From Litomosoides sigmodontis (taxonomy: Eukaryota > Nematoda > Chromadorea > Rhabditida > Onchocercidae), in assembly GCA_963070105.1 (NCBI GenBank), contig OY718805.1:5328001-5392000 (forward strand): 64,000 nucleotides of DNA. Reading direction: 5' to 3'. Every line of letters begins with the position of its first letter. The stretch's first letter is position 1. Below the pieces are notes generated by a model. That model made no database searches. It saw nothing but the letters and a program-made list of their open reading frames with translations, and had not been told where the DNA came from. The position numbers were made by a program, and so were the translations under genes. Below are positions 6,325-56,696 of the stretch, piece by piece.

Positions 6325-9300
6325 ATGGGAGATGTTCCGCACTGTGTATTGTTTGAACACGCAGTCGGATATGTTTTGTTCCGCGTTACGGAATTCGAAG
6401 ATATTGGAATGAGTATTCCCCAGGTCCTTTTTTCAATTTCTAAGAGGAAAAATATTGTGGTTTTCTATTTTTTTAAGTTTCTTTGTTCAAAGTGAACAAA
6501 TTCTGTTTTCGTCCGTTTCAAGATTTTTTCATCGTGGTGCTGATGTGCATAACTTTTTAGGTAGAGGACTCTATTTCTGATGTACAGCGATTTTGCTCAA
6601 TTGTTAAAGTAGAAGCTTTCGAGCCTTTTAAAAATATTGAATCTGCACTGGAAAATTGCAACAGCATATCAGAAGGTAACTTATCTTTCTTTTCTAAAAC
6701 TCATGTAATGCATGAATTTACGAACTTTATGAAACGGTTGGTGGCAAGTTCTGATCTTCGTAGTTTTAATTTCTAATTTGTTTCCCAAATTAATTATTCA
6801 TTTAGCTAACTTTTAACTGAATGGCAATTTTAAAATGCTGTAAAAATCACGAATAGGAAAGCATCTTTTTAGGCCAACTTCATCCGGACTTACTTAATTT
6901 TCTGGAAGCAAATTTGCCAAGAAGGAAAAAGAAAGTGGTTACACTTGCTGTTGGTGATTCGAGATTGGCTAGCACTATAAGTGAACAAATTACTGGTGTA
7001 AAATGTCAGATTTCTGGAGTTGTACCAGAGCTTATACGTGGTATACGCATACATTTTGAACATCTTGTCAAAGGCTTACCGCATCATTCACTTTCAAAAG
7101 CTCAGCTTTCACTTGGTCATGGCTACTCGCGGAAAAAGGCATACATTAACATAATTCATCTTTGAGTTATGGGAAGGGTTCTACATTTAATTGGCATTTG
7201 ATTTTCTATTTCAACCATATATTATGGCTATAATGAATTATGGGTTTTGAAGGTTAAATTCGATGTTCATCGCGTAGACAATATGGTTATCCAATCAATT
7301 GCACTTTTGGATCAACTTGATAAAGATATTAATCTCTTTGGGATGAGGATTCGGGAATGGTAAGTCTAGTAAAAGAATTCCTTAACTTGATGTTGTAAAG
7401 CTAAGCTATTGGAAATAAGAGGATTTTTTTCCTTGAAATAATGATGTTTCCAGGTATTCATATCATTTTCCTGAGCTTTTCAAATTGGTTCCTGACCAGC
7501 TTAATTATATAAAGTGTGCATCTACTATAATGGATCGAAAAAATCTTGATGATGAGGTCGTCGGAAAATTGAATGGTTGGTGTTAGTGGTTTATTTTCTA
7601 TTTGTTAAATTGAGAACAGTAATCATTGTGCAAGTGCTACGTTGCGAATATTTTATGGGGATTGCTAGCTTTTAGATAAACCTATATTTCCAAATTGGAA
7701 TCTTCTTACTTTTTGACAAGAAAATAAAAAGGTATATACTTCGAGAATGAAAATGCTGAATATCTTCAGAAATTTTGGAAGATAATGATAAAGTAGCTGA
7801 AATAGTGGAAGCTGCACGAACATCAATGGGAATGGATATATCTGACCTTGATTTATTCAATATTGATCGTTTTGCAAGGCGTGTTCATGAATTAACAGGT
7901 TATCGCCAGAAGCTTCATTCATATGTCAAAGAACGTATGCATTCATGTGCACCTTCACTTTCGGCATTAATTGGCGAACAGGTAATGAAATTTGTAGTTA
8001 AGTGAAGTTCAGTTTAGGTTTGGTAAATTTTTAATGCATTAATAGTTATTTCTCAGGTTGGTGCTCGTCTTATTTCACACGCAGGAAGCTTAACAAATCT
8101 AGCGAAATATCCGGCATCAACAGTACAGATACTTGGAGCTGAAAAAGCGCTTTTCCGTGCACTAAAAACTAGATGTAAGTTTTCCTTTTGTTCACCTATG
8201 TATGTCGTGGTGAGCAGCTGTTTCGTAGATTAGAAAACTATTAAATCCTTACACTATTAAAATCATTTTGTTTATGATTTGTCATTACCAGCAATTGCTT
8301 GGATTTGTTTCTATTTGATTTTTTCTTAAAAATTAGAGTATCTATGTAATTTATAGCGAATACACCAAAATATGGTCTGCTGTTCCATTCTTCATTTATT
8401 GGTCGTGCATCAACCAAAAATAAAGGTCGTATATCACGTTTTCTTGCAAATAAATGCACAGTGGCTTCTCGTATTGACTGTTTCTCAGATATACCAGTTT
8501 CTACATTTGGTGAACATCTTAAACAACAGGTTTGCAATGATAACTGGAAGATTTCAAAATTCAAACAATCCACATTCTGGAGATTTTTTTGATGAAATAT
8601 TTGAAACCAAACATGATGTTTATAATTTGTCCATTAAATGTGATAGGTTTGTTGCATGTTGTCTGTTTAATAAAAACAAAGATTTTAGGTATAATATCTA
8701 ACAATTTTTTTACAATTTCCTTATCCAGTTTCTTAAAACGTTTAGTGTCTTAGGTAGAGGACCGTTTGAAATTTCTGGAAAGTGGTGTAATTCCGAAAAA
8801 GAATTTAGAAGTAATGAAGGAAGCGATTGAAGAAGCAGCTACTACAAAAATAAAGGTTAGGTTGTGCTGTTCACTTGTAGAAAGTTGTTTAAAAATTATT
8901 CGAATGTATTTTCGGGTTATTTTTACAGTAATTTATATGAATTTTACTCATAGATCTTGAAAAGGAGGAAAAAAGAAGCAAAGAGAGCTAAAAGAGCAGC
9001 TGGACAGCAAACAAATGACGATTTTGATGTAACTCAAGAGTCGCAACCGGATACTAATGTAATGGAAGTAGATGAAGGAACTCCTAAAGAGGTACCGATA
9101 CATTGCTGTTGCATTAGTAGTTTTAAGTTTCGATGTTTTTCAGTTCTTTAAAGCATAATTATAAGTTATAGATTTTCATCGACTTTGAGGTGCTTTTGTA
9201 TGGAGTATCCCAAATTTTAATCTTTTTTTTTGAAAATATCCAGCTTGAAATCAGTTACTTGGCATATGGGAGACGATACTATTCTATTTTCCTGTCAAAT

Positions 9301-9815
9301 TATACAGTTGCAAAGTATCTATAAGTACTTTTTAGAAAGTCAAGAGGCCGAAACTGATGTTGCATGAAGATGTGAACGGTGAACAAGAGGCACATAATGA
9401 TGAGGACATCGGAGAAGTTAGCCATAAGAAGAAAAAGAAAAAAGAAGGTTCGAAGTCCGTAGTGGATGAGTCTATTTGCATGGAGGAGAATGACGGTTAA
9501 TTTTATCGATTAATTTTATCGATGTGCGTATTTTTTAAAATATGGTTTGTGTCTCTTAATGAATTGCGTGGATATTTTTTTCTCTATATCATTATATTAT
9601 GGCGTGAACTTCGGGAGTCTGTGTCGTATGTATTGATTTCAGGAGCAGTGAGTCGAGAGGGAAGTTCAAAGAAGAAAAAGAAGTTAATGAAGAAAAATGA
9701 TCTGGAAATAACAGAAAACGGTAATGATTTACTCGAGCGTCACCATGGTGCACTTTCAGCTTCAAATGAAGGAGAGATTCACAAGAATAAGAAAAAGAAG
9801 CATTTAGTGGAGTAA
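6325..9815 (+). CDS. nol-56: Nucleolar protein 56 (box C/D snoRNP core)
   Basis: NOP56 pairs with NOP58 on fibrillarin to form the box C/D snoRNP that 2'-O-methylates and processes rRNA in the nucleolus. Twelve exons: 6325-6423, 6561-6675, 6873-7138, 7253-7359, 7454-7575, 7770-7981, 8057-8174, 8357-8529, 8754-8855, 8954-9091, 9336-9495 and 9643-9815. They encode 594 residues, the same length as human NOP56. Domains in order are an N-terminal NOP5NT domain ([11 protein letters not shown]), the NOSIC/coiled-coil middle ([19 protein letters not shown]), the Nop RNA-binding core ([20 protein letters not shown] and [14 protein letters not shown]) and a lysine-rich KKKKKK tail. All phases agree. 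Intron 3 has a GC donor (AAAAAG then GCATAC at 7139), with no GT alternative before an in-frame stop. It is the best-supported long gene here. Confidence 0.97.
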
Positions 9816-12700: not shown

Positions 12701-14674
12701 ATGATTTTTGAGAGTGGCCGAATACCAGAACACACTTCCGATTATCGAATTGCCGTATTTGGTGCCGGTGGCGTTGGCAAATCGTCTATCGTGTTACGCT
12801 TTATCAAGGGAACATTTAATGAAAATTACATTCCTACTATCGAGGATACTTTCCGACAGGCTGGTTTTTTAACGGATAACAAATCACTTTTAATTTATTT
12901 AAGGAAAATTTTTACTGCTTCTGTAGTCAGCCGAAAGTTTAGATTTTTGGAGAAATTGTAAATACAGTAAGGGTAGAGACTACGTTTATTAAAAAAACTT
13001 GTAATCGAGGTACGAATTTTGATTTTCTGTATAAATATCGAGCGCAGTGAAATTATCTTCTAGAGCAAATTAGTTAGTTGCTCTAGATTTTATGATGCAT
13101 GGAAATATCACAGCTTGCTCGAAAATTATAGATCTAGGCTTAGACTTAACTCTACTACTTCAACTGCCCTTTTTTCATTTTCATTCATTTGCTCGACGAA
13201 TGCATAAACTAAACTTTAGAATGACAAACATTTAATGACAAATGATTACAAATGATTTATTTTGCCTGTTAAAAAAATTGTTTCCTAAATGGAACAGTGT
13301 TTTATACCGTTACAGGAACTTAGCCCAAGGATATAGGAAGGGAGTGGCTTTTAGCATCATGATTTAAATTAGGTGCTAGCATTTCGATTTTTTGCTTTTG
13401 TGGAGCAATATTTCAATTTCTTTGTGATTTGAAAAGTGTGCAAGCTTTTTAATCTTATTTTTTATATTCAATATTTCCTTTCTGCGAACAGTGTTCGTAA
13501 GAAATGGCTTTTAAAATTGCTACTCTGACAAATGCGTTATGATATAAACAGCAGAAGATGAACTTGTGTCCAATTTTTAAACAATATTTCTAAATTATTT
13601 CGGTTGGGAAGAAGATCAGTTCGAGATATTATTGTAGGTAATAAGCTGTAATCATAAGAATGTATGCACATTACAAATCACCGACACAACAGGAAGCCAC
13701 CAATTTCCTGCTATGCAACGACTTTCGATTAGCAAAGGAAATGCTTTCGTACTGGTGTATTCTATTACGAGGTTATTCTTTTTTTGATATAAATTCAACA
13801 TCTCTTCTTTGATTTGTGATCAGCTGCAAAAGTGCGCAGCGTTAATTGCGCAGGTCGTGTTTTAATCACCTCTAATTAAAATAAAGCATTATTGTTGTTA
13901 AATTGCGATTTTTGTGGTCGCTATTGCGATGTAAGGTTGCACTATATTTCAACACCTAAATTTTCAGCAAGCAAAGTTTAGAGGAGCTTGGACCCATAAT
14001 ACTGATGCTAAAGGAAGTGAAAGGTGAAAGCGTTACTGAAGTGCCTATTATGCTTGTTGGCAATAAAAAAGATGAAGACCAAGTAATATATTTTGCTGAT
14101 TTTCTGGTCAGGCAAATGCTTGCAAAAAATTTATTATATTCGCTGTTTGGTTATACTACGTATCCATGATTGAAGTGAAAGAGTTTTAAAAAATATTGCA
14201 CTTAGGTGTTGTCATGAGTCAAAAAGCGCCGAAAACTTTCAACCGCTATAATGCATTCAGAGTATAAATTAACTTGTTTATAAGAGGGCAAGCTAAAGTT
14301 GTCAATAACAGCATGAACTTCAACAACATTTCGTTACTGGGAGATAATCCACCACAATTTTTCATAGGCCATTTATAAACTTTATCAATCGGTAACTGGA
14401 CAATTTCTGTCAAAATTTAATCTATTTCACTTTAATTCTAAATGTTCTAATTTTTTAATTCGCATTTCAGCGACGTGAAGTGAGCTCCGAACTTGGACAA
14501 AAGTTGGCCACAAAGTGGGGAACGGGTTTTATTGAAACAAGTGCTAAAGACAATGAAAATATCACCGAATTATTTCAACGCTTGTTGGCGATGGAAAAGA
14601 AACGAACTTTGGCATTGACAATGGATGAAGAGAGCGGTAAAAGTAGCTCTAAAAGGAAGTGCTCTCTAATGTAA
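12701..14674 (+). CDS. drn-1: DIRAS-type Ras-like small GTPase
   Basis: Four exons: 12701-12859, 13638-13771, 13968-14082 and 14471-14674, giving 203 residues. The Ras G-boxes are all present: P-loop GAGGVGKSS, switch [18 protein letters not shown] at G3, NKKDE at G4 and ETSAK at G5. The G3 box reads [14 protein letters not shown] instead of the usual DTAGQ. This is the hallmark of DIRAS proteins and goes with weak intrinsic GTPase activity in that family. The tail has lysines followed by CSLM, a CAAX prenylation box; Met at the last position favours farnesyl. In C. elegans DRN-1 acts in cholinergic neurons, so a neuronal signalling role is inferred. The first intron starts with GC (CGACAG then GCTGGT). 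The junction lies inside the invariant FRQ/VISC, so the exon limits are secure. Confidence 0.95.
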
Positions 14675-22317: not shown

Positions 22318-25300
22318 TTATCCCTCCTCTGTTGTATCAAAATTCGTACTGTTAGTGTTCATTTCTCTTGTAACTTCATTCACATTTAGAATAGATTCAT
22401 TACAACGCGGTGTAACTCGAATCCCAACTGCTTGCAACACTTCAGTTAACTTTCGAGAGTAGTCCAGATGACCTTTTATCTTAAAAAAGAATAAATTTAT
22501 AGTTACAGAAAATCGCCACTTGCAACTTAACACAATGTGCTTTCAATCATGTCTTATGAAAAGAATACTGTATTAAATGATTCATATTTTTTAAAAAATA
22601 GAACGAACCAAGTGAGAAAGATTGAAATTGACAATTTTCTTCTCCATTTTGCACACCACAGGACCAGTTCCAGCAATCGTAAATTGTACACTCATTGTAC
22701 GATAAATAAACCTGAAAAGTTTACAATTATTCTAAATATACAATTTAGAGCCAAATATAAAATCTAAACCATTTTGGAAACTTAAACTGTCAAATCATAT
22801 CAAATCTACGCAATTTTATTGAAAAAAGTAATTACGATAATGTTTTTATTCTTGAACTAAAATAAAAAAAAATCAAAGTATTAAAACCTCGCCTCAGTAA
22901 CCAGTCGCTGTCACAATAACCATTTATGATTCTTCCTCCAACAACTTGACTTATCTGATGCCATTGAGTGGGTGAAGCTGTTACAGGTGCGCCAAGAAGT
23001 ACCACATCACTAACTATTCCTGGACGCTTTTTTAATTAAGCTTCAACACAAGTATAAACAAGAGAAAACGTCATTAGCGCGTGGAAAAAAGCTCTCCAGT
23101 CTACAGTTAATAATATCAGCGTTGTTTAGGATGCATCATTTCCCCAAATTTATAATTAACTTCATCCGTAAAAACTCACCGTAACATGTATTCCGTTTCG
23201 CCATGGCCATTAAACAATGGAAAATTACACGTGCTCCAAGTGAAAATCCTATCAAGGTAATAGGACGATTGCCATGAGCACGACTCAGGAGTACTTCAGC
23301 TAATTGCTCGCCGACCTAAAACTATACCAACTTTTGTTGACAAATTCGGGTGTACCAGAAATTTTTCCCTTCAGTGATTGCTATCAGAACTTTAAAACAA
23401 AATGTGGCCAATTAAAATGCGATCCTAAATAATGAATCAAAATAATTATCTTCCAAAAAATATAAACTCCATGAATTCATGCCTCAACAGCTCGTCTTAC
23501 ACACACATTCCATGGGTTATCGATCACACTAGATGCGGAAAGAAGAGCCACTGGCCAAGCAACTGCAGCTACTAGACCTTAAATAGTTCATTCCTAGGAC
23601 TTCAAAAAGAAAATCGAATGCCACCTAAAACCAGAACAAAACATTTTTTTCGACGAACTGAATGTTAAAAATAAGAGTGATGCAGAAAAAAATACCCGCA
23701 AAGGCAGTTTCCAAAAGAGTATGTTGAACAGCAAGTGATACTGCAAAAGACATCAAATAATTAATTGCTCGTCCTAGTTCAGCCAAATATTTACTTTCAT
23801 AGCGCAAGATGTACTGCTCGCGTGATAACCACAAATGTCTCCATTGCTGTTGAAAAACACGTTCCCCTTCCTAAAAAAAACGGATTCCTCAAAATTTTAC
23901 TAAAATGTAAATCGAAAGCGTTTAAACCATAATCTCAATTGTCTATTCCAACCAACAAAAGAAATTAACCGATGGGAAGTAAGTCAATCAACACTGATAG
24001 ATATCAGTGTAGAAATGAGAGTTTCGAGTACAAAGATGCTTATATGTCATGGAAATGTTAGAGAACGAAAAAAACATCAACCATCAATATCCTATTACAA
24101 AATCAATTATGAAAGTACTGAATACAGGACATGAAATCGAAAACACAACCACGAATTTGATTTCAAATATCAAGAAAAATTGTGACAATTTGAAAAAGGA
24201 AAGTTCAAACTTACATCTTCAATCCACCCACTGATTGCCAATACACAGTGCAAACTTCGTCCTTCAGAAATCGGCTGAATTACAAACTCTTCGATTGCAC
24301 CTACTCGTTTCCGCATTTTGTAACCTTAGAGATTAAACCATAATAAAATCTGCTAAATAAAATTTCTAATCTAACAAGTCAACATTGAAAAATTTGTTTC
24401 AGATTTTTTGCTCAAAAAAATATGAAACACTATATGTAAAGTTCCGACTTAAGCAAAATACAAATAAAGGAAAAAATTTCCGACTGATTATAATACTTTT
24501 TCTCAATAAATAAGTGCCTAATTTGTAAATACACTAAATTCCACTAGCACATCAATGATACAAAAAAAGCACAACCTGTAGATGAAACAGTATTTTATAT
24601 GCTATAGATCAAGGAACCCATAGTTTAAAACTATGGACCTCTTGTTCTGCTGATAATAAACACAATATGTAATATTTTTGCACCAAAAAAAATTAATTAT
24701 GGTTCACAGCTATCACCAATTCACTTTAGACAACTCACCCGTTATTCCGGCACCAGCTACTCCAAATAACGACCCAAGTGCAGTAGCACCCGCTACTGTA
24801 CTAATACCCGCTGCTGCTCCAGCACCAATTACGACCCCCGCGCCAGTTGCCACCAACGGTGCTGCTAGACCACCCGTTACTCCTAAAATCCAACAATTGA
24901 AAAATAATTGTGCATTACAACCATAATTTTTTAAAGTTAATGATGCAACAAATAAAGGCTAGAAAAACTTCGGATATGAATACAACTCAAATCCCACCTA
25001 TTAAGACGCCACCGACACCACTCGCTGCACCAATCATAGCATATCGTTTAATTTTTTTCACTTTCGTAGCTCTAGCTCTCACCATTCTTTGTTCTCTAAA
25101 AACAAAAACGAATTTCACGTACTTAATCCAAATAAAGCAGTATTACTCATCATGTATAATTCTACAAGTCCAACCTCAAACACAGTATGTCCCAGGATTT
25201 TCACCACTTCTTTTAAATGCCGTCATTATAAATGAATAAACATCGAATCTTAGGAATAAACTTCCTGACAAAATGACATCCATGCATCATAATCACCAAT

Positions 25301-28331: not shown

Positions 28332-30346
28332 TCAAAGGGCCACTAAGCGTTCTTGCAATGAAAGCTGTGTTTTCGTTAAGCTTGCCAAATATGAAATCAT
28401 CATGTAATCCTGCAAAGAAAGACTTGTACAATACAAAAACATAGCTTTAAATACAAAATACATTAACAGTCTCCAATCAAAGCTGCCGATGTAAAAATTC
28501 TATCAGGCATAAATCAGATGAGAAAAATTTTTTATGAATGATATTTTTGTGAAGAAACTGCAAAAGAAAATATTCACCCTTAAACTTGTTTTAACTAAAA
28601 TATCCAATTTGTCATCGGACATGTGAGTTGCAGCAGTACTGACAATATCCATCATGCGTCGCCCGAACGATGAATCGACGGGCAGTTCTGGTTTTTCAAG
28701 CATCTAAAACACAATATTTATAGTTGTCGCAAGTAAAAAACACCCAAGACAAATTCTTGCATTGAAAAAGAGGATACTGCCAAACTTGAGAACACTGTCT
28801 CTAACCTTCGTGAAATGTACCATTTGCAAAATGATTAAGTCAATATTATTTCTTTTGATATTGAAATACTTTCTCATGAAAAACATCAACATTTCCATAA
28901 AAACGTCATATACGCAAGACAAGTAGATCTGCTTTCTCTTTTTACATCTTAGTCAATTTAGTATAATGGAAAAGTAGTAATAATAATAACACTTGCTTCA
29001 TTCACATATTTTAGAAGCCTCTCCAACCAGATTACCATTTCACCCGTACTTTTCTCAAGCTGTTCTAAACCGCAAGCTAGAACGACCTCACGCTGTTTAT
29101 TATTGTAAGCTATACCACCTTGCACTAAACTTAGTGCAACACCTTCACCAGGAAAAGCATCGAATTCAACTTTTAATGGATTGAAAATAGCGCAGTGTGG
29201 ATCTCGAGTCCCAGGAATCCCAGCTTTAATCCTGGAAAGAAAAAATCTGAATTTATTTTGGGATAATGAACGGGCGTTTATGAACATCAATAAATTTATC
29301 ACAACCGATAAAAAAAATAAACCTTAAGTATGCTCGTACAGGCATCCGATAATTTTCATCTGGTGAGTTAAAAGTTGTGTCAATGGTAAGCAGGATCACT
29401 GGAGGCGGTTCCTTCTTGGCTGATGATTCACTTATCAGACGATTATAATAATCATGATATGGCAAACAGTGGATTGATAAATCGGCGTTGGTATAAAACC
29501 TACAAAAATGAATCCCTCCAAATGACACCGTCGATAATTTTTTTAACAGAGAACATCCATTCCATCTAATGAACTTCTCTATGTCTAGTGTAATTTGCCT
29601 TAATTTGGCTATCACTTAGAACATAGAAAAAATCTGTCATTAGATTTATCAAATCAATTTACTATTGCATTTCTAGCATTCGTATATAAAGTTTCCTTAA
29701 GTATTTGTCAATCTCGTTATCATCTCTATGAACAAATTATACACTACTACTAATTTATTTTCTAATAAAGCACCAGCTAATATTTAAGGTACTAAGAAAG
29801 TCTACGACTTGGAAAAGATGTTAAAATTGAATTAACTATACCATCCAACTGGCTGTTCCGAGGGCGTTGCCCGTTTCATCATCATCAGCATTGTCTGATT
29901 AAAGCCATCGTCTAATTCTGGCGTGTCTTCTTTTTGTTCTCGGAATGGTATAGCGTAACAATTAGTTACCTAAGGATATATCGAAAAAAGAGTGAATTAA
30001 TGAGCCTTTGTGATCTTCACATAAACAAATGAATTTCGATGGCAACATTAGTAAAACAAGAAAATAAATGACAGCAACTTCTCTTTATCAATCAGCGGGA
30101 CTTCTGAAAAGTATCCTAAAACCAACACGGTGCTAATTGTCGGTCAATTTTTTACAATTGGTTTTTAACTCTAAATTTATCTCAGTAAAATAACAATACT
30201 ACCTGAATAGCATTTTTTTCATAGAATCCCATCAGTGTTCCCAGTGCTTTGTCGTTAGCACCTGGCTTGTTTGAACGTCTTTCGAATGCATCAACGATAG
30301 TCAAGTACACTACTGGATGTACTTTAACTGTTAGCGTTGAAGCCAT
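28332..30346 (-). CDS. eif-3.F: Eukaryotic translation initiation factor 3 subunit F (MPN domain)
   Basis: Six exons: 30203-30346, 29842-29969, 29323-29499, 28997-29231, 28578-28703 and 28332-28409, giving 295 residues. It is a stoichiometric MPN-domain subunit of eIF3 in the 43S preinitiation complex. The N-terminal MPN domain reads LTVKVHPVVYLTIVDAFERR, LGTLMGFYEKNAIQVTNCYA, PVGWFYTN and LSIHCLPYHDYYNR. The metal-binding JAMM residues are incomplete, as is normal for eIF3F, so no peptidase activity is expected. The C-terminal helices end in DYMMISYLASLTKTQLSLQE. The ATG at 30346 starts the conserved sequence. The donor of intron 4 fits best as GAA followed by GCAAGT (a GC-AG intron). An in-frame GT donor nine bases upstream (TAT then GTGAAT) is also possible and would drop three residues in a variable loop. 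Confidence 0.94.
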
Positions 30347-38341: not shown

Positions 38342-38342
38342 A

Positions 38343-41245
<2,903 letters not shown>

Positions 41246-44200: not shown

Positions 44201-44542
44201 GTATATTTTTAAAGCTCAACTTTCTTGAGTATTTTCTTTTGGCAGAGATCAGATTTAAGAAGACAGAGATAAAAGCTAATTTAATTCGCAATAATTTAAG
44301 CAATTGAAATGATAAATCTGAAGACTATCGATTGTCACATAAAAAACACATTGAACGCGCCCTAAATCAGGTGATAGCAATTTCTGGTGAAATATTGATG
44401 AAAATAGGGGACGGTTAGCACAGCGACAATTCCGCCTGTCGACCGTTCCGCTTCTGAAAAATCCACAGTGAAAGATCACTTTGTCAAAACACCTAGCGTC
44501 GAGTGCATTCGGTCATTTGATAATTAGTTAGGTATTACCAGT
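41246..44542. other. Convergent intergenic region with a strong palindrome
   Basis: 3.3 kb between the ends of ldh-1 (+) and the NRF-6-like gene (-). It should hold both 3' UTRs. No gene is supported. It contains the 54-bp palindrome at 42331-42384 and a looser inverted repeat of about 17 bp at 43800-43848. Confidence 0.6.
42331..42384 (+). repeat. 54-bp near-perfect palindrome (hairpin)
   Basis: Two 26-nt arms (AATCATTTGAAAGATAAAAG... and its reverse complement) flank a TG centre. Only three positions fail to match. In plus-strand RNA two of the three become G-U wobbles and one is a G-A mismatch. It lies about 1.1 kb past the ldh-1 stop, outside any coding exon. It could be a MITE relic, a small-RNA hairpin or a cruciform-forming site. 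Confidence 0.75.
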
Positions 44543-47500
44543 TTAGTTTTCCATGGCTATTTGTGACTTCTTGTGAAAATATCTTCGTACAGAGCGCTCA
44601 ATGTTTAACAACGGAAATTCGGAAAGCATTGAAGCTTGAAAACCAAACAAATATGAACAAAATAAATTGATTATTGCAGTGTTCAAAAATTGATATTTGT
44701 TTTCGTACCGATAAGGAAATTTTATGAACAGATAAGATGCAAATATCACAGCCAAATGAATTAGGTAGACCTGAAATATTGCATATTCATTTAAGAGTGA
44801 AGAGATAGTTAATTCAATCTAATCAACAATTCAAGCAAACGTGTACTGCACAATTATACACGTGTAATATAGAATGATCTTACCGAGTAGCAAAGTATGG
44901 AGAGCGGTAGAAATAATTTAAAACTAAGAAATGTGTTAATGAAGCTGCCATATCCGTTGTGGCAAGCATAAATTAACCAGGCAACCGCGATTGCAAATGT
45001 TGTACGATGAAACGCTCCGTAAAAAAGGTAATAAAGCTTCCAGTTCAAATTCTACAAATACAATGTTTAAGTTTTGGAGTTTAAATTTTCCTTTGTATTT
45101 CTACGTTTCATTACTTGTAGTAAAGTGTTGGAGAACTTACGATCAGAATTGGATAGAGACCGTATATACTGATGAAAGCAAGAAAAACGGCGAAAATCCA
45201 GCCAAAGATGACAAAGGTGGTGGAGTGTCGATTGTAAACTTTCTTGGCCTGAGTTTTAGTCAAATGATGACCGAGCAATAGACCAATGATGTACGGTGCT
45301 ACGCGATACTGAGGTTTGATGTACACCACGGCAAAGTGCTTTAAATGACAGGAAATAAAATTTCAGGAAAAGTAAAAAGAAGCACAATGATAAATAATAG
45401 CCTTTAGTTCCGCAACCGAGTAGTGTGACGCGGTTGTTGCTAATTAAAGTTATAACATAATTTCTGCAGCATGACAGCACTCTTTGTCAACCTTATCACT
45501 TTTCATGACAACCCTTAGAGATGCCATGTATGCATAAGAAATATGTCCTGAAGCCATTGCCGATCACAACGATCGCAATAGCTTCAGGACAGACAGAGCA
45601 CCCCCCACCCTTAACTTTCGCTGACAGGGGAAAAAACAGAGCTCGTGCTCTAGGAGCTCAGAATACTTCTCTACTCATCATCCTTCAGGAAGCTACCTGA
45701 TGGGAGTCTTATGTCATCAGGGAAATTACGAGCAGTAAGTGCACAAACCTCCATAAAATTGGAATTGTAGATAGGAGGCCTGTTCCAGCCAAGTTGTGTG
45801 GGTGGCATGTTGTAAATAATCATTGCAAAAACTCTGCCCACATTTGATAAGGCTATGCAAAGAATAGATAACAGATAGCCATGTTTCTCGTTTTGACCGA
45901 GCGCCAGTAAGAATATGGGGGAAAAGAAGTAAAAAATAAATTCTGTACTTATATACCTAAAATTAATTAATAAAGTCAGTAGTGTTTGCATGTACGCATT
46001 TAAGACTAGTCAAATTGATGATGAGGCGAATTGAAAGAGGAATGAATTGAGAGAATTTTGCTTAAGCTATCAAAGCACTCCTCTGGTCACTCCTCTGGTC
46101 GAAATTCAATACAATGACCCTATCATTTTTAGTTAAGCATTAATACTATAGAACACTTACCATGCCCATCCCATGCAACGATGTTCAAATAGACTGCCTA
46201 TAAGTAACAAATTCTGCCACCAATATTTCGAGCATTGCGTGATATGATCAATTTCAGGCCATAATTCTTGATAATAAATACTGGTGAGAAAATAAATAAA
46301 TATCATTGTGTAACAGTAATTTGGCCATAAGCGAATAATTCGATGCACGTAGAAATCTAACCAAAACTTTGACGACCTCCATGTCGGCTTTGTCTCTGAA
46401 TTCAGATCAATCAATTAGAAAGACGATCAGTCAATTTACCCATTTTCATATTAAAGGATAACAGAAGTAGTTTGTTTCCATCTGTGTGTGTGTGTGTGTG
46501 TGTGAGTCAGAGTGTGTGTGTATGCGTGTGTGTGTGTGTGTGTGTGTGTAGGTGTGTGTGTGTGTGTGTGTGTGTTATATTAATTCTTTCGCAAAACTTA
46601 GAATTCCATAATATTTACTCATTTCCTTGTATCGTTGAAAAAACCCGTATGCGTTCACCGTTCCACCTAACACCAAAAATACGTCCACTGAAAGAAGGAA
46701 ATTCGCAATCGATTGATTGCCAAAATTGCTGGAGATGTCACGGTAATATTCGTCAACGTTATCGATGTATGGCTGAAATATATCGGAATTACGAACTGCA
46801 ATAAAACAACCAGAAATGAATAACGGAATTTAAAGAGGAAAGGGTGTACGGTGCTTAGAAGTGACGTGAAAAGTATGAAATAATGAAAGTAAGGGAATGA
46901 ATTTTGAATGACAAAATTTAATAAATGAATATAGGTAAATTCAAAAATATTAAGAGTTTCAATATTTCTTTAGAACAACGAACAGCAACAAAGGCAAACA
47001 TATGACCAATGATAATCCAAATCATCGTTAAGAATCGTATGCCAAACATACACGTTATGACTTTTGAACGATTTTTCGGCATTCTGAACAACATGCAGAC
47101 ATTACGCTTCAACGACAATGCAAGAACAATTTGCTCTTTCATACTTCTGAAAGTTTAAGTTAATTCGTTTAGAATGAGAAGGAAAAGAGGAAAAAGAAGG
47201 AAATCGATAATTTTCAAATTCTTATTGCTTCAATGATGGAATTGCGCGATCAGAAAAGCAAGCATACTTCGTTCCAGGACCCCTCGCTATGTGATAAATC
47301 GTCGAGAAGATAGCAATTAACCACAGAAATGTGTTGAAAAAAAGAATAGCCACAGGCAACGGCTTATCGTACCACTTCGATGGGCGACGAGAGTGGACAC
47401 ATGTTGAAGATGAGATAGGGTTTTCCGGTAATTCGACACCCGATACTTTCTCGTAGATACTCCAAAACTTCAAATTTATTGTCAAATTCCAAGGTAGCAG

Positions 47501-48622
47501 ATTTAATTTTTAAAATATTTTGCATCATAGACATCCGATTTGTCCTTTTTTTTCTCTCCACTCTTACTTACTGCTCGACATTACGTCACTTCTTAATCGC
47601 TTTACAAAATTTCTGCATGAAATTTTTTAAATTTGTTCAACAGTACCTGATACTGCTCATTTAAACAAGATTTTGGAATGCAAATAGTGTGTGCGATAGA
47701 TTTATACTGTTTCGGATCATAACGGTAACAGAACGTTGTTGGATATCGGGAAATTAAAAATAGTTCCTCTTTGGCTAGCTTGAAACAACTCAGCATTCGG
47801 AACATCTGTAAGCAATAAATCGTCTTTAAGGGAATGGAAGGAATGGTATTTTTTCCACTTCTGAATCTATGGAAATTTGCCATTCCATTCGAGCCATAGC
47901 TCTCTGATAAGCCTCAAGGTAGTGAAGCATGAACTGGAGGAACTGTCGGGATGCTAAACGGAAGGAAGGATTGGGAGTAAGAAGTTAGCACAAATGCTAA
48001 TAATTTTCAGAGACCCGCCACGCATATGAAAGAATTAAAGGATAGCACTAACAAATCTGCTATCTGTAATGAATTCATTGGATCTGCCATGTCCAAATGT
48101 AGGATAAAATGCGTTCAATGCAGTTAGTGCGGCGCGACTGGAATTCTGATTAGCGCCCGCCTGGAAATAATTTAATTAAAATATACAATTCGCAATAATT
48201 CATAAATACATTTGGGAACGCAACAATGCTGTTGAAAAAAGTTTATGATGAAAATGCTAGGTGTAAGGACTAATGCGAAGTTTTATCGCTTCACTGATCT
48301 GAGATCTGAGCTATTCTGAACATCGAAATTTGTTCGCATAAATTATTCATTTCAAAATTTTGTCTAAAAAGCAATTACGTAGTGGGAAAGTGACAAATGC
48401 ACGACGATGCACACTTACATCCAATAAATGTTGAAAACAGTGAGGTGACAGCGACTGAAGCATCTTTTGTTCCACGTCTCTTATGGCCAAGGAATCATCA
48501 GTTTGGCCAAGAACGATCATCACCTGTTCCGCTACGATACTTAAGATACAGAACTGAACTGAAAGTCGCATATTCACTGCAAGAATAAATGTAATTAATT
48601 TTATTGAAATTGATGTTTTCAA
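44543..48622 (-). CDS. NRF-6-like multi-pass acyltransferase (acyltransferase-3 family)
   Basis: Twelve exons: 48416-48622, 48049-48160, 47859-47953, 47647-47805, 47268-47467, 46984-47146, 46619-46772, 46161-46395, 45749-45956, 45141-45338, 44884-45051 and 44543-44770, giving about 708 residues. A signal-peptide-like N-terminus and a cysteine-containing luminal domain (LSPHCFQHLLD, then ICIPKSC) precede about ten membrane helices. Family landmarks of NRF-6/NDG-4 proteins are present: GIRFLTMIWIIIGHMF, SVDVFLVLGG, YVHRIIRLWPNYCYTM, IKPQYRVAPYIIGLLLGH and VYLIHLAV. C. elegans relatives act in gut lipid or drug uptake and yolk transport; no substrate is established. The luminal domain is divergent: the usual DASGKxPSG motif is not visible. 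The joins at 48049/47953 and 46984/46772 are the least certain. The gene hosts the intronic hairpin at 45544-45591. Confidence 0.85.
45544..45591 (-). other. Intronic stem-loop
   Basis: A stem of about 21 bp closes a five-base ACAAC loop (plus-strand reading), inside the intron between exons 45749-45956 and 45141-45338 of the NRF-6-like gene. Outer arms TGTCCTGAAG and CTTCAGGACA pair perfectly. The single outer-stem mismatch is C-A on the plus strand but G-U on the minus strand, the sense of the host gene. One bulged base sits near the loop. Confidence 0.7.
46484..46575. repeat. Interrupted (TG)n tract
   Basis: Three TG/GTGT runs broken by short interruptions (AGTCAGAG, TATGCG, AGG). It lies in the intron between exons 46619-46772 and 46161-46395 of the NRF-6-like gene. 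Confidence 0.9.
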
Positions 48623-49142: not shown

Positions 49143-49708
49143 TTATTGTTTTGCAAAATATCTGAAGCCACAAGCGGCTGTTGCCGTGACACGCGCTTTA
49201 CTGCGTATATCCAAACAAGACATCACTCAGGTATTTTTGTGAATTATAATTTTAAAAGAATTCGTTTGTTTGGAAGGGTGCGGTGATTGACTGATAGGAG
49301 CGCAACGGAGCAACTGAAAATGGTTGTTACTGCGATAGGATTGCATTTTCTATCTTCGCAATGGGAGCGCTGTTAATTCCAGTTTTCCATGGGTTTTGTT
49401 CATGAAAACTAGAAATGATTGTCTCCTCTTCAACTGAGAATGCAGATGACTTGGTTTGGAAATATATTTATCCTTAATTATGTTCAATTTCGTAATTTTA
49501 ACCATTTTCAAGTAATTTTAAGTTTATAAAATTGTTGAAAGGAACACTTGACTTGCTCTAATTCAAACCATAATGCAAAGTTGAACGCTGGGTCATCGTG
49601 TTCAATAAATTCGAACAAGGAGAGTGGTCGCTGAGGCTGACAATTCTCATAATCGGCTGGCTGATCAACGTAGAATCCTCTTGCGGATCCTACAGGAAGG
49701 GTTAACAT
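49143..49708 (-). CDS. Doubtful small gene, unknown product
   Basis: Exon-like segment 49548-49708 (ATG at 49708) contains YENCQPQRPLSLFEFIEHDD followed by FALWFELEQV. It joins in frame to 49143-49200 (KARVTATAACGFRYFAKQ, stop), for 72 residues. Another exon-like segment follows at 48937-49054 (CAEMLKCKQKCLEL, stop at 48937), but I could not join it in frame. A strong acceptor at 49691-49692 suggests that the real first exon is further upstream. The amino-acid texture, cysteine spacing and splice sites look genuine, but no family is recognised. It lies between the neprilysin-like and NRF-6-like genes on the same strand. Confidence 0.3.
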
Positions 49709-51089
49709 TAAAAAAGGGTAAATCGGAAGGAAGATGTTTGAACAGTTACATATTAAGACAGCAAGTTCAGTGCAACAACACGACGATTGCTTCACTTAAC
49801 TGGTCGGTGGTAACTAAAACAGTAGCATAACATGAATCTGTGAGAAACAATTTCAGAAACCTGTCAAACTGCTTACGCTTTCACATAACGGAAGCGAAAC
49901 AACAGATTTTATTATTCATTCATCGAATGGTAGAAGTGAGAACACAGAGATTAAGGAAGAAAATAGTTACGCCTCAAAAAGCTGTTTTAACGTATATTTA
50001 CAAAGCAAAAGTCCGCCTGTCTCCTTTTGAACGTTAAAGCGCCGAAATAATAGCTTAAACCTTAAACATAGTGCTATCATGCGAATCCATAACTACAGCA
50101 GTCATTAACAAAATTAATCCAGCAACACACAAACATTCTGAGTGATTTGTTTTTACTCGAAAAAAAAGAAATATTTGGTGGGACGATTTACAGCAAGAAA
50201 TTCGACCCATTTTTTGCTAAATATATTAATAGCAACTACTACCGTTGCTCACGCAACGGATGACTGTAAATGCAATAATTTTTTTGAGCTCATATTGACG
50301 GGAAGATTGAAGGAATCTGAGTGATGAGTGATAATATTAACCTTGGAAATGATAAGAGTTGCATTATCAGACGGTCACATTGATATCCTCTGAATTGTTG
50401 CTTCTGCGATTTTTCGAACATAAGATATCTCACTCATACTATCAATGCTACTGCTCTGCTTGCAGTAATCAGCAAGGATACTGCTGCTAGCTTTTCTCAT
50501 TTTAAATAATAAATTCATGAAGTGTGTGAGTTTAACAGATTGTAAACACAAATCACAGAGTTAATTAAATTCACTGCGTCTTCGGTAATATGGAAGTTGA
50601 GGATTTATCAATGCGGAAGAGGCAGAATGAAAAGAGAGAGAAAGACGATGTTAAAACCGCACGACTTGACGTTGCATTTATTATTTTACAAACATTTCAG
50701 GGCACTACTAACATTCAGATGACCTTCACGAAGTTGAATGAATAAAAATAATTTTTAAGACAATGAATTTAAATTCCAAGTAGGAATGTAAATGAGCTTG
50801 ACACTTGAGTTAATATTTACACGTTGATCAGCAGACGCCGACCAGTTGATTAGTAGACCCGTACAGTTATTGCCACCACAAAAGTAACACAAACCTATAG
50901 CAACAAGCACAGGTTAAGAGTAGGCAGATGGGATACCATTCCTAAGAATGTTGAAGTTATCACGCACTTGAGCTTTATTAATTATAAATTCTGATGAAAT
51001 AAACTCTATAAAAATTTCATACCTAAAGTGAATTTTTTTTTTAAATTTTGATACCTAAAATATACAATATACAAAAGTCCGGGCACTAA
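49709..51089. other. Intergenic, downstream of the neprilysin-like gene
   Basis: 1.4 kb with no supported exon. If the small gene at 49.1-49.7 kb is real, its first exon should be here; nothing with the required phase was found. Confidence 0.45.
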
Positions 51090-54000
51090 CTACCACAGTG
51101 AACACTTCAGTGTTGGGTTCATTGGTGAATTTGGCGGACACTTGAAAGCTTCTGCGAAATCAGGCTGATTAGAGACCATACCATTAACACGAAATCGAAA
51201 TGGCGAGTGTTGATCGGTTAATACTTGTCTGATTAACGTAGCTGGCCGTGAATGTCCACACCATATCTGCAATATCTTTTATGAAGTCGAAGTTAAAAGC
51301 TAAAAAAGGCAGAGAAACAAAGTTTAATGCTTCTTCGTTCGCGCAGAAACTACATTACTTAATTTTAAATTAGTTTTTAATGCGTTCATTTTGCAACTGA
51401 CGGTGTTGAGAAGTTGTAAATTTAAAACTTTCAAGTCAATTTAACATTCCAATATTAAATATATCTTTTATAGAACTACACTGAAAAGCCATGAATTGAC
51501 TGGAACAGAGAAGCAAGCAAAATTCACCTGTGCACTGCTTAGAAAGAATATTTGGTTCATATCGAAATGCTCAAGTCCTGGCAGACGTTTCTCCTCTTGA
51601 CCAATTCTTTTAATGTAATTTCTATATGCCTAAAGTAATCTCATATTAAGAAAGAATTCTAACACATCAATTTTCTATCAGAGAATTTTTCAGATTATTT
51701 CAACCTAGAAAAAAAACAATGTGAACTTGGAGCAAGAAATCAGAATCTCCACACCGGATGAATAAATATTTGTTGACGATTTTCAGATCTTCTTTCTGTT
51801 AGGCATCAGTCGCTTGCAACCACCAAAGGCTTTGAAACTTTGCAAATTCAAAATAATTAGCACTTGGAAAAAACTTCAAAGGGATAGGCTAACTCGGAAG
51901 GCTTCTTTAATACCACCATTGTCAGCAATGTTTTCGCTTAATGTACGTAGTCCGCTGATGTGCAGATCTGTTCCCGGGACAACGTAATTGTCGTATTCTT
52001 TGATGAAGCAGTCGTTTCTTTTCTCGAAATTCTCCTTTGTCACACCGTCCCACCAGTCACGCAAGTTGCCTTGGTAGTCAAATTGGCTTCCTGCAAAAGA
52101 AGTCATTTCACTTTACATCCCTTGACATGCTAGGTCAATAAAAGTATTTCAATGAGGTAGACGCGTGGAAAGCGGAATTACTTCTCAATTTAAATGTTGA
52201 ATTTAAAATAGTCATCTGCACCGCATTTTTGAGAGAGTTTTGAAAAGTACCAATAGTGCAGAGATCGGTAGCGAACGCTTAACAATGATGGATTTTATTT
52301 GTATTAAAAATAAGGACATTGATTGTACTGTATCTGATAAGCGTCGAATATGTATTACGACAGAAAATACCACTACACAGATACCTCGGTCGTCGAATCC
52401 GTGGATCATTTCATGTGCAATAATCGATCCTATGCCACCAAAATTCATCGCCCTGAAATACGAAGTTGTGGTGCTGAAAGACGCAGACGCACAATTCATC
52501 TCAATAAATTAAAAATGAAACAAATGAGAAAAAATCTCACTTCGGGAAAGATCGATCAAAAAATGGCGCTTGGAGAATGGCTGCCGGAAATACTAAAATT
52601 GAGTAGGAATAAAATTATGATTTTTAGCTTACTTATTTTTGCTAACAGCGAACGAAGGCACCACCCGACCAAGCGAAGACTAGCACGTTCACTTTTAAAC
52701 GTCAAAAACAAGCAACGAATACGAACGAACCGATAGCATTTCTAAGCGATGAATAAAAAGCATTCACGGTGGACGCTGCGGCGCTAAACTCTACCCTTTT
52801 CGCAGGTTCCACCAGTTTTCGATATGACTGTTCCATTGACCAACGTGACACTTTTGTTATAATTTGGGCGAATGTATCATTGCGATAAATATGCAACTGT
52901 AAATTAGAAAATTCCAGCGAACCTATTGAGAAATGGGATTTTTGAGAGCGCAGTGTTCACGTTTGTTACATTCCTGCGACTCTGACCATTACGGGAGAAA
53001 ATTGTTTAGATGTTTAAATTGGATAGCTACGTACTAGCTTGTAATATTCATCGAGATTTCTCCTACTCCGGATGAATTCCGGATAGCCAATGAGACTTAA
53101 CATTTCGTTAATCTTCTTTATTGCTTTCTGTCGGGTGCTTTCATGCAGCCAATCACACTCCTCCACCATCTCTTTTAATGCATTCTTCAAAAGGTTCACC
53201 ATTTCGAGAACTCCTTGCTTGTCAGCCTGAAATACATTACATGTGATTTATCAAGAAGCACGAAGTCTGCAGCAGCAACAACGACAGTCAAGGTTGAGAG
53301 TTACTATTTCGAAATCATGCTTCATTAAAGAAGGAGTTGACATATAAAGCTCCTGAAGCATAATCCATTCGTTCTGTAGCTGTTTGGCTGCAAACCTTCC
53401 ACCGTGATGACTTCACTTCTTTGCCAGTGATAGTACGCAGGAACTTCTGAAGACTTTTTTTTTTTCACTTTCTTACGAACTTCGTGTTGCAGTAAAATTG
53501 TAATAAATAAACTACGGGTGCACTGTAGACTTACCATGTAGAGAGCTTGAAAGGGTTACGTGACACATACGGTTTCTAGAGGTAAAGTAAATGATGGTAC
53601 TTCCGTCGTTGTATTCGAAATTTGTTAAAATGAGGATTACGAGTATACAATGAATGTTCAGAGTGTTAGCATCGGATGCATTATGATAAATCCTACCGCT
53701 GAATTCATTAAACTTCTTTTGCTATAAAACTCCTCGGTAAAATTACTTGATAAATATCATCATATCGTTCATCCAATTGAAAGTTCCACGTTGATGTATA
53801 AAGCAGTATCATGTAGTTTGCTAACGTGCGTTTAGGCGTCATCTGAAATTTCTCACTTTTACGGTAGATTAATTTAGATATACCGTTGCTTACATAAGCA
53901 TAAAATCTGAAATTGAAATGGAAGAATCTCTTCTGGCGAACGACTACATTGTTACTTACTGTTTCTCCTTCCCGTCCCGCCACGTTTCTCAGGACCGTCC

Positions 54001-56696
54001 TATTGCAACCTAGTATTAACGGTTATACTGGTCGGTCCTTCGTCTTCCTCATTAAGTGTCACGCAATTCTTCCTTTCGAAAAAACAGCGGGTGTGCCTTA
54101 TTTTTCTATGAGAGAACAACATGCGTGCCTTTATTAATGCATCAAGTTGTATCAGGAATTCCACGGTGACAATATTGATCACAGGATCCTGATTCAGATA
54201 CCAGTGCAGATCAGTGGGAATCACACTTCGAAAGTACTTATTCCATTTCATCTAAGAAGAGGAACAAGTTTAGAATAATACGGTCAATCAGTCACACTAA
54301 TTCTTTTTATGTGCTGCACTTTTTATTCCTCTCTTCAACAACTAAAAAAATACGCTGATAAGAACAGCGAAATTTGTAATTATAGAAACGAAACGAATTA
54401 ATATCGTCAGTATTGGATATCATTTTCAGGCTAAAAATCTGAAAGGATCGTAATGTAATAAGGTTCTGACTTAAGATGATTGAAATAGACTACAATTCTA
54501 ACTACAATTCATGGATTTCTTTATTCTGACTCAAAGAACTTCCGCCAGCTCAAAATGATGGAAAATGTGCGATTCAGAACTAGCAACCTCCGACACAAAA
54601 ATGGGGAGATCGCTAAGATGATATTGATGGTACAGCAAACTGTAATTTCTTCGATTTTCCTCTGCAATCATAATCTGTAAAACATAAAGGTAAATTTTAC
54701 GTGACCTTTGCAGTACATTTCCCACGGAGAAAGATCTATCGTAATGGAAAGTAACAGAAAAATGGTCAGTATGATATGACCTTAGCAAGTTTCTTTTCAA
54801 AGTCAATGATATCATCCGCGTCTTCTTCAATTTCAGCTCGTTCCTTCCTCATTCCGACGTCATGCGAGACGAGCAATGCCTAAAGTTATTACTTTAGATG
54901 TGATAAGTAATAAGCAACATATGCATTCATTCCAACTAGCATTTGGAAGGGATACATTGCGTGTTCGCTAATAAAAAAAAATTAGCTTTTACCTTGTCAA
55001 CGATATACTCTCTGTAAGCTCTCAATTGCGACGAATAATTCTTTGCATTTAAATAGTACTCTCTACTACCAAAACCAAGTGCAAGTCTTCCTTGATCAAC
55101 CTGAAAAAGGGATGCTCAGACTTGTTTTGTTGCGGTTTCAGAGCCTCCTTAATTACTTACAGAGAGTTGTAGAAATTTTGAAATCAAAAATCACCATCAT
55201 GTTTTTCTTCTCATTTGTTTAAAAGTTTTTCAAACACTGCGATAAAAACACCCCCGTTTTTTATCGATGAGAAATTTCCCATCCATTATGTTGGCGGAAA
55301 TATTACACTGTCAAAATTATTAAAACAACTGTTTCACACTTCCACCTTCCTATTACTTGACGAAAGAGAAATCATCAGAAGCACCCAAACTTCGGCATTA
55401 TTCCGTACGTCATTTTGAGCTACTTTGATCCGTCGTTGATCTGTTGATCTGTACAAAAAAGATGGAAGAAAAGAAAATTCATTTACATGAATTAAGCGTC
55501 TTGAGACATTCTTCTTATCAATCGACACATAGATACTCATGAAAATGCTAGACGATCGCGTCTGTGCAATTCGGATCATCATTTCCGTAAAATCGAACTT
55601 CTCCTCGGACCACTTCTGTCCATAAACTATCGGCCAGGCACCAAGGTACTGAATGAACCTTCTTCACACTAATTCTTATCATGGATTGCGTCTTCACATA
55701 AATTAGTAACCCTTGCTGATTGATAAACCCCCAAGCTCTTGTTTATTGATAAACTGAATGCAACAACAAAACGAAAAAGTTTCCATTCAAGAACTCGTGA
55801 AAAAATCTCGTGACGGAATTTTATATTTCACCAAACACGCTATTCACTGTGACTCAACTTCACTTGAAAAATAAGATGGGAGAAAATTTGCTGAACCTCA
55901 ATTGCCTCAATAATTTCTTTCCCACGCATTTTGTGAAGTCGAGAAGTGTCCATGCAAGTTTGATATATCGTTTTCACAGCATCCATTGCATTTGAATTCG
56001 TCGATTGTTTTGAATCATAAAGTTCTGAAAACACAGACCAGCAGCAGTAAAGTGTGCTGAGTAAAATTCTAGCCACACTGTTCCAAGTTTATGGAAGCCT
56101 AATTTGTCAAATTATGGTCGCGCAGATTAGATAGAGTAAATAACATCACCGGACTAAGTTAATTCAAATTACCTTTCATTTTTCGCTCCACTTCTTCACG
56201 AACTGAAGTAAAAACTCCGTATGTAGCAAGGTCACTCGGGATCGGATTCGTCGATATCCAACGTCCACAAGTATATTCAAAAAAATCATCACATGGATTC
56301 ACAGTCTGATTCATTGAAGAAAGCAAGTAATAAGCTGCTTTTACATAACCTGGCAAAGTACCAACTTCGAAATTCTTCACTGTATCTGAAGGCATGATCA
56401 CCTGATATCACTCTACTCAAATGTTTATTTCCAAATTTTAACGTTGCTTGCTGCATTTTAACACTTTTTTTTAATACATGCAGTGGTTGAAGCACTTATT
56501 ACTACTTCACTCTTTCAAAGTACTGAAAATATTTCTATCAAAGCAGCACATCTCTTTCCAGAAGTGTAGGATTTTTTAATTCGACAGAAATTAGAAGTTC
56601 CAGAAAACACTTACCGTCTGCTGCCGGATACGGCAATGAGAAAGTGAAGAAAACGACTGTAAAACGTATTGCCAAAAAATGCTGGATGCCTAACAT
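51090..56696 (-). CDS. Neprilysin-like M13 zinc metallopeptidase
   Basis: Sixteen well-phased exons from 56401 down: 56173-56401, 55897-56024, 55487-55648, 54993-55100, 54781-54879, 54588-54674, 54129-54251, 53747-53842, 53321-53446, 53035-53226, 52731-52896, 52541-52592, 52385-52452, 51894-52090, 51528-51629 and 51090-51266 (703 residues), plus a first exon from ATG 56696. M13 hallmarks are complete: NPCDDFFEYTCGRW, substrate-site VNAFYSS, IVFPAAILQAPFF-like strand, zinc motif HEMIHGFDDRG at about residue 560, third ligand in SENIADNGG, IWCGHSRP and the terminal CSLW. The enzyme should cleave small extracellular peptides. Exon 1 encodes a hydrophobic signal peptide (HFLAIRFTVVFFTFSLPYP). Its obvious GT donor (GACG then GTAAGT) is out of phase with exon 2, while a GC donor eight bases earlier is in phase. 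Two later introns (after 53321 and 54129) use GC donors. Many nematode paralogues exist, so no specific nep symbol is given. Confidence 0.93.

What the first reader, a model, noticed from the sequence alone, without database searches (positions are those of the whole stretch)
7139..54128. Unusually high use of GC-AG introns across unrelated genes
I modelled 97 introns at both ends using reading frame and protein conservation. Eight begin with GC: one each in nol-56, drn-1, eif-3.F and ldh-1, and two each in the TMCO4-like and neprilysin-like genes. Five are forced by phase and/or conserved residues (7139, 12860, 40379, and minus-strand 53320 and 54128). Three are favoured but have an in-frame GT alternative. 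Even five of 97 is far above the under-1% typical of most animals. The sites are not the strict AG|GCAAGT consensus: +3 to +6 read ATAC, TGGT, AAGT, ATGA, GAGG, ACGT, ATGA and ACGC. This suggests relaxed 5' splice-site recognition in the lineage, rather than chance retention of a few perfect GC sites.
Basis: partly seen in the sequence, partly recalled or inferred. Interest (0 to 1): 0.85.

Follow-up and report, generated by a model that had tools for sequence, protein, structure and literature searches.

The report
GC-starting introns in filarial worms
Eight introns in this stretch of a filarial worm genome start with GC instead of the near-universal GT, at least three of them also do so in related worms, and public gene models for those worms often go wrong at exactly these places.

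Summary
All eight GC-AG introns are supported by protein evidence. The genome matches Litomosoides sigmodontis proteins. A spliced aligner giving GT and GC equal cost, Pfam scores and the solved ECE-1 chain place GC donors at 7139, 12860, 22892, 23482, 28996, 40379, 53320 and 54128: 8 of 88 re-modelled introns (9%, CI 5-17%). Fourteen control dinucleotides gave one comparable call in 199 introns. In DNA sampled outside the window the count is 3 of 132 (1 of 80 in genes not picked for a suspected GC site), so the window overstates the genome. About 2-3.5% genome-wide fits all counts, near the 3.46% of Globodera and above 0.6% in C. elegans. The GC sites match the U1 consensus no better than GT sites (4.0 vs 3.8 of 7; only 11 sites). 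At three of four testable junctions other filarial genera also show C at +2, revealed by gene models that run on into the intron. No compensating change was found: U1 A7 and the U6 ACAGAGA box are intact, and the U1-C zinc finger matches 27 of 31 residues of a solved one. Relaxed tolerance at +2 is the best reading; rate and mechanism need RNA data.

The parts
7139..7252 (+). nol-56 intron 3, donor AAG|GCATAC, acceptor TTGAAG
   Evidence: 100% identity of the GC model (484 residues) to the public L. sigmodontis protein P0001; score loss 48 if masked; no insert at the junction in 28 of the 29 proteins printed, own included; the 29th, P0027, was not matched there by my search pattern
12860..13637 (+). 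drn-1 (Di-Ras-like) intron 1, donor CAG|GCTGGT
   Evidence: score loss 32 against W. bancrofti P0197; the three other models retrieved (P0184, P0203, P0204) all continue DTFRQ with Ala = GCN
22712..22892 (-). TMCO4-like intron, donor GAG|GCGAGG
   Evidence: public L. sigmodontis model P0260 uses this junction, score loss 28; DUF726 427.6 vs 412.9 bits for the GT alternative
23316..23482 (-). TMCO4-like intron, donor GAG|GCATGA
   Evidence: DUF726 427.6 bits against 402.4 bits with GT at 23506, the site used by P0260, which lacks VCVRRAVE
28704..28996 (-). eif-3.F intron 4, donor GAA|GCAAGT
   Evidence: score loss 13 with P0132; MitMem_reg 53.5 bits vs 49.5 (GT 28990) and 37.8 (GT 29035); no insert in Toxocara, Thelazia, Gongylonema and Cercopithifilaria models; AS insert in Elaeophora, O. 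flexuosa, B. pahangi models
40379..40538 (+). ldh-1 intron, donor AGC|GCACGT
   Evidence: public L. sigmodontis P0139 uses it, score loss 29; Ldh_1_C 114.8 vs 102.8 bits; VVSAH read-through in W. bancrofti, B. timori, B. pahangi, D. immitis models = C at +2
53227..53320 (-). neprilysin-like (M13) intron, donor GAA|GCATGA
   Evidence: ECE-1 chain 3dwb: alignment gap-free across the junction, score loss 24
53843..54128 (-). neprilysin-like (M13) intron, donor AAG|GCACGC
   Evidence: ECE-1 chain 3dwb: alignment gap-free across the junction, score loss 18

Best explanation
These are ordinary major-spliceosome introns whose donor carries C at +2. In this filarial nematode C at +2 is tolerated at donors that are no stronger than its average GT donor, so GC-AG introns persist at a few per cent of all introns, and some stay fixed across filarial genera. 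U1 is expected to pair with them through the remaining donor positions, with an A-C mismatch at +2. Shown: the GC donors and their junctions by protein homology, no extra consensus in 11 sites, C at +2 in other genera at three junctions, intact U1 A7 and U6 ACAGAGA. Inferred: removal as introns in mRNA, the genome-wide rate (about 2-3.5%), use of the major spliceosome, and that the tolerance arises after U1 pairing (for example at the hand-over to U6 and Prp8) or from weak selection on the site.
For:: eight window donors set by protein homology with GT and GC at equal cost; 14 control dinucleotides give 1 comparable call in 199 introns; 11 GC sites average 4.0 of 7 consensus matches, 203 GT sites 3.77; models of other genera imply C at +2 in ldh, drn-1 and eif-3.F; the DDX41 insert, in the same phase as ldh, reads Tyr (T at +2), so the reading can tell T from C; no compensating change seen; 8 of 88, even as the best of about 1029 windows, needs a genome rate near 2% or more.
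Against: Outside the window only 3 of 132 introns are GC, and 1 of 80 in genes not chosen for a suspected GC site; this alone does not differ from 1%. No RNA read was examined. The consensus comparison rests on 11 GC sites. The gene-finder estimate (GC 14.3 of 365) is noisy: the same run gives AA 9.0, GA 8.9, TT 4.0, TA 3.7 and TG 3.4, and three of its GC calls outside the window were refuted by protein alignment. At the GTF3C1-like junction O. flexuosa shows T, not C, at +2.
Confidence: 0.72

Rival explanations
1. Ordinary background GC-AG usage of about 1%, with a chance cluster in a window that was picked because it looked unusual.
For: 1 of 80 introns in genes outside the window that were not chosen for a GC call; 3 of 132 overall outside; window differs from outside at p = 0.03.
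Against: At 1% the expected number of windows with 8 of 88, out of about 1029, is 0.003; at 1.25% it is 0.016 (assumes equal intron numbers and independence). The GC sites lack the closer adherence to consensus described for mammalian GC donors (PMC2490688 passages).
Confidence: 0.2
2. Variant U1 snRNAs recognise the GC donors.
For: Two of five U1 copies are divergent in the donor-pairing end: AAACTAACCTTGC (L004) and AAACTTACTTGG (L005).
Against: None of the five changes A7, the base that faces +2 (numbering recalled). The sites these variants would favour are rare among the 11 GC donors: +3 T in 1, -1 A in 2. Only 41 of 806 first-look candidates were scored, so a further variant may have been missed.
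Confidence: 0.05
3. The GC donors are kept as weak regulatory sites for alternative splicing, as reported for let-2 in C. elegans.
For: GC donors are enriched in alternatively spliced genes in human, C. elegans and Arabidopsis (PMC2490688 passages). Sharing across filarial genera.
Against: Sites in nol-56, eif-3.F, ldh-1 and TMCO4 lie inside conserved domains, and the GT alternatives tried lower the domain scores by 4 to 25 bits (nol-56 by alignment score).
Confidence: 0.1
4. Base errors in the assembly, or wrong gene models.
For: No reads were inspected here.
Against: C at +2 is also implied by public models of Wuchereria, Brugia and Dirofilaria (ldh), Wuchereria and Brugia (drn-1), Elaeophora, Onchocerca and Brugia (eif-3.F); other dinucleotides are near zero.
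Confidence: 0.03

Closest known systems
GC-AG introns of cyst nematodes (Globodera rostochiensis, G. pallida; PMC4901422, passages seen)
   Same: Elevated GC-AG fraction in a nematode lineage (3.46% there), found because gene models could not be fitted with GT; partly conserved between species.
   Different: Their donors conform to CAGG[T|C]AAGT; here no GC site of 11 exceeds 5 of 7 matches. Different nematode clade; the authors wrote that the elevation appears restricted to Heteroderidae.
Rare GC-AG introns of C. elegans and mammals (PMC5906903 and PMC2490688, passages seen)
   Same: Introns with C at +2 and AG at the 3' end.
   Different: Under 1% of introns; in mammals the other donor positions adhere more closely to consensus; 5 of 26 C. 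elegans GC introns had a GC counterpart in C. briggsae, whereas here 3 of 4 testable junctions imply C at +2 in other genera (a test that only sees species whose models run into the intron).
Filarial Iso-Seq junctions (Brugia malayi, Dirofilaria immitis; PMC7704054, passages seen)
   Same: Same group of worms; long reads corrected gene models at junctions missed by predictors.
   Different: In the passages seen GU-AG and GC-AG are pooled as canonical, so no GC-AG fraction is given there.
GA-AG rich animals (Eurytemora affinis, Oikopleura dioica; PMC7072748, passages seen)
   Same: Animal lineages with many non-GT donors.
   Different: There the dinucleotide is GA; here GA gave no call with score loss >=9 in 199 introns.

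Membership tests
GC-AG introns of the major spliceosome | Intron starts GC and ends AG, exons join in frame | tested here: met
   eight window introns
GC-AG introns of the major spliceosome | Intron is removed in mRNA | not testable with these tools
   no RNA data; protein conservation only
GC-AG introns of the major spliceosome | Not a U12-type intron | not tested
   a passage of PMC10639083 lists nematodes among lineages that lost the minor spliceosome; no search for its RNAs was run
GC-AG introns as described in mammals | Other donor positions closer to consensus than at GT sites | tested here: not met
   4.0 vs 3.77 of 7, p = 0.45, n = 11 GC and 203 GT; no single position differs; small sample
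GC-AG rich nematode lineage (Globodera kind) | Genome-wide GC-AG fraction of about 2-3.5% | tested here: inconclusive
   11 of 220 overall, 3 of 132 outside the window, 1 of 80 in genes not picked for a GC call
GC-AG rich nematode lineage (Globodera kind) | Donors follow CAGG[T|C]AAGT | tested here: not met
   the best GC sites match 5 of the 7 other positions
GC-AG rich nematode lineage (Globodera kind) | GC donors partly conserved between related species | tested here: met
   C at +2 implied in other genera at 3 of 4 testable junctions; T in O. flexuosa at the fourth
Donor change compensated by U1 | U1 with G at position 7, pairing C at +2 | tested here: not met
   the five U1 copies found keep A7

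The most novel reading that the evidence does not exclude
Filarial nematodes have a spliceosome that accepts C at +2 without needing a strengthened donor, so that a few per cent of introns are GC-AG, many of them old and shared across genera; because prediction pipelines prefer GT, filarial proteomes carry systematic errors at these sites.
Probability: 0.55. Interest if true: 0.65.

Novelty: new variant of a known kind. Interest (0 to 1): 0.5.

Why it matters
If the genome-wide rate holds, filarial worms join cyst nematodes as GC-AG-rich lineages, but with donors of ordinary strength, which makes them a natural test of how the spliceosome reads +2. It also has a practical side: four of the ten filarial LDH models compared, three of the four drn-1 models, five of the six filarial eif-3.F models P0130-P0135 (three with an insert, two with a deletion) and the species' own TMCO4 model appear wrong at these donors, and such models are used for cloning and drug-target work.

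Tried and rejected
A first self-trained gene finder seeded with long ORFs learned a wrong coding model; its introns matched none of the window genes later confirmed, and known exons scored negative. Reseeded with window exons it worked (8 GC of 310 introns on the best path) but its GC calls were unreliable: window 4684, C1-block 162221, C1-block 183449 and C5-block 33397 were not borne out by protein alignments; C1-block 139805 remains untested. Its expectation-maximisation estimate (GC 14.3 of 365, with AA 9.0 and GA 8.9 beside it; GC 3.2 after the 11 supported GC donors were set to GT in the script, and 20.6 after 15 sites were then planted) is soft support only.

Running control dinucleotides with GT alone gave gains for many of them, mostly at the same genes, because with GC barred these introns have no good GT solution; the fair control allows GT, GC and one other together.

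The phenylalanyl-tRNA ligase part of the Dirofilaria fusion model P0125 gave no sound alignment upstream of the calponin gene and was dropped. P0125 also gave extra GC calls in the calponin region (107566, 107698, 109347; losses 2, 2, 19) that P0121 does not support; I used P0121. The acyltransferase-like gene at about 44.5-48.6 kb was not counted for want of a homologue. My composite neprilysin query placed a GC at 55891 (loss 9) where ECE-1 places GT at 55896; ECE-1 placed a GC at 54960 (loss 1) where the composite has GT at 54992; neither is counted.

Genes outside the window were partly chosen because the gene finder had a GC call in them (calponin, RSPRY1, NCBP1, a GTF3C1 piece: 52 introns); I therefore give the count without them (1 of 80) beside the full count (3 of 132). 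LDHD, kept among the 80, also had a weak gene-finder GC signal (0.38), which its proteins do not support. BDP1 of O. flexuosa (P0194) differs at the GC junction by SKV for R; I could not read this as either GC or GT. Literature: PMC137088 (C. elegans GC-AG introns) is not held and is cited only through other papers; PMC3488318 was seen in listings only.
Full report
What the DNA is. The window lies on a 10.9 Mb contig of a 65.9 Mb genome in 7 contigs. The nol-56 model is 100% identical over the 484-residue query to a protein of Litomosoides sigmodontis, and the ldh, PQ-loop (ctns-like), TMCO4 and CCT-alpha genes of the window find L. sigmodontis proteins whose longest contig has the same length as that of nol-56, 276,910 bases. 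The species is thus inferred to be this filarial nematode of rodents.

How donors were tested. I wrote a protein-to-genome aligner in which an intron may start with GT or GC at equal cost and must end with AG. Proteins came from three database searches: the species' own public models where found (nol-56, ldh, ctns-like, CCT-alpha, RNF170, TMCO4, BDP1, NCBP1, POLE2), otherwise other filarial species. For each GC call the score loss on masking that one donor was recorded (BLOSUM62 units).

Result for the window. Nine genes gave 73 introns. GC was chosen at nol-56 7139 (loss 48), drn-1 12860 (32), ldh 40379 (29), TMCO4-like 22892 (28) and eif-3.F 28996 (13). For eif-3.F this depends on the species used: of five filarial proteins aligned, one (Cercopithifilaria) gives GC, two give GT at 28990 and two GT at 29035. 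The neprilysin-like gene, aligned to the solved ECE-1 chain 3dwb, has 15 introns with GC at 53320 (24) and 54128 (18); the database alignment runs across both junctions without a gap. For TMCO4-like 23482, the public L. sigmodontis model uses GT at 23506 and so lacks VCVRRAVE; with the GC donor the Pfam DUF726 score rises from 402.4 to 427.6 bits. Pfam also favours GC over GT at 22892 (427.6 vs 412.9), at the ldh site (Ldh_1_C 114.8 vs 102.8) and at eif-3.F (53.5 vs 49.5 and 37.8).

Controls. With GT, GC and one further dinucleotide all allowed, the 14 others produced one call with loss of 9 or more in 199 introns (AC in a GTF3C1 piece, where four dinucleotides compete within ten bases), against eight for GC.

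Outside the window. A 200-kb block of contig C1, 60 kb of C5 and 5.5 kb upstream of the window were read. Eleven gene pieces gave 132 introns and three GC donors: calponin-like AAG|GCAACT (loss 35), BDP1 AAG|GCAGTT (15), GTF3C1-like GTG|GCATGT (9; a second, partial protein for that gene, P0149, gives GT at 172950). Four of these pieces (52 introns) had been included partly because a gene finder had called GC there; the other seven give 1 of 80 (BDP1). So the window is richer than the rest (p = 0.03-0.04). With about 1029 windows of this size in the genome, a rate of 1% would yield 0.003 windows with 8 of 88, 2% 0.4, 3% 5. A genome rate of about 2-3.5% fits all counts; 1% does not fit the window, and 5% fits the outside less well (P = 0.09-0.10). 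Models made with a preference for GT, as at TMCO4 23506, can hide further GC donors, so the outside count may be low.

Strength of the sites. Leaving out +1 and +2, the 11 GC sites match CAG|..AAGT at 4.0 of 7 positions on average, the 203 GT sites at 3.77 (p = 0.45); no single position differs, and no GC site exceeds 5 of 7. In mammals the rest of the donor adheres more closely to consensus at GC sites (PMC2490688, passages), and in Globodera GC sites conform to CAGG[T|C]AAGT (PMC4901422, passages). With 11 sites a modest difference cannot be excluded, but sites such as AGC|GCACGT and GAA|GCATGA (3 of 7 each) are far from that.

Conservation. Some public filarial models run on into the intron, which reveals its first bases. 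In ldh, models of W. bancrofti, B. timori and B. pahangi continue VVSAHV and of D. immitis VVSAHY: the His codon (CAY) puts C at +2, where T would give Tyr (four of ten LDH models compared, the other six are clean). In drn-1, three Wuchereria or Brugia models continue DTFRQ with Ala (GCN) and one is clean; the rest of their inserts differ, so only the Ala is shared evidence. In eif-3.F, Elaeophora, O. flexuosa and B. pahangi continue YVNE with Ala-Ser, A. viteae and O. ochengi lack 13 residues, and Toxocara, Thelazia, Gongylonema and Cercopithifilaria are clean. At the GTF3C1-like site O. flexuosa reads Val, so T there. Across 86 proteins compared (not all filarial), 9 of the 22 inserts of three or more residues at introns of this genome fall on its GC donors. 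The DDX41 inserts, in the same phase as ldh, read Tyr at that place, as a GT donor should. The test is one-sided: a clean model says nothing about its donor.

Machinery. Rfam finds five U1 copies over the cut-off; three start AAACTTACCTGG, two are divergent (AAACTAACCTTGC, AAACTTACTTGG), and none alters the base facing +2. The one U6 hit has ACAGAGA intact. The U1-C zinc finger agrees with the solved chain 2vrd at 27 of its first 31 residues (the joined model may hold one residue too many at its intron). No compensating change was recognised; Prp8, U5 and other factors were not examined.

Known background. C. elegans 0.6% and H. bacteriophora 0.8% GC-AG (PMC5906903, passages); G. rostochiensis 3.46%, called the highest for any nematode in 2016, the elevation said to be restricted to Heteroderidae (PMC4901422, passages); M. 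graminicola 0.45% (PMC7593179, passages). The filarial Iso-Seq paper pools G[UC]-AG as canonical and notes predictors erring where reads support a nearby non-canonical junction (PMC7704054, passages). Searches of the held library for GC-AG with filarial and introns, with Brugia malayi, with Onchocerca, and for 'GC splice' with donor, filaria and introns gave 0, 2, 0 and 0 papers; of the two, one was checked in passages and gives no filarial GC-AG rate, the other was not opened. So no filarial GC-AG fraction was found in what I could search; subscription papers are not covered.

Verdict.

Noticed in passing
L004 1501-1664 and L005 1501-1669 (C2:4054041-4054204 and C4:8608674-8608842, minus strand): Two U1 snRNA copies with changed donor-pairing ends (AAACTAACCTTGC and AAACTTACTTGG) that still score over 107 bits; possible variant U1 or decaying copies.
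   Followed up: partly
window 23482-23506, minus strand: The species' own public TMCO4 model (P0260) lacks VCVRRAVE because a GT donor was used instead of the GC donor.
   Followed up: yes
public LDH models P0158, P0159, P0161, P0174: Four of ten filarial LDH models compared carry residues from the intron that follows the GC donor.
   Followed up: yes
C1 block 69860 (L014 9860, C1:5069860), minus strand, DDX41-like gene: Models of O. flexuosa, W. bancrofti and B. malayi carry a similar in-frame insert of 23-26 residues at a GT donor (TGC|GTATGT here): a retained intron or an isoform.
   Followed up: no
C1 block 184204-184444, NCBP1-like gene: The public model includes an 8-base and a 25-base exon around a 41-base intron; skipping both keeps the frame. 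Possibly an annotation artefact or alternative micro-exons.
   Followed up: no
window 44500-48600, minus strand: Multi-exon membrane protein resembling the nrf-6 acyltransferase family (name recalled), not counted here for want of a homologue.
   Followed up: no
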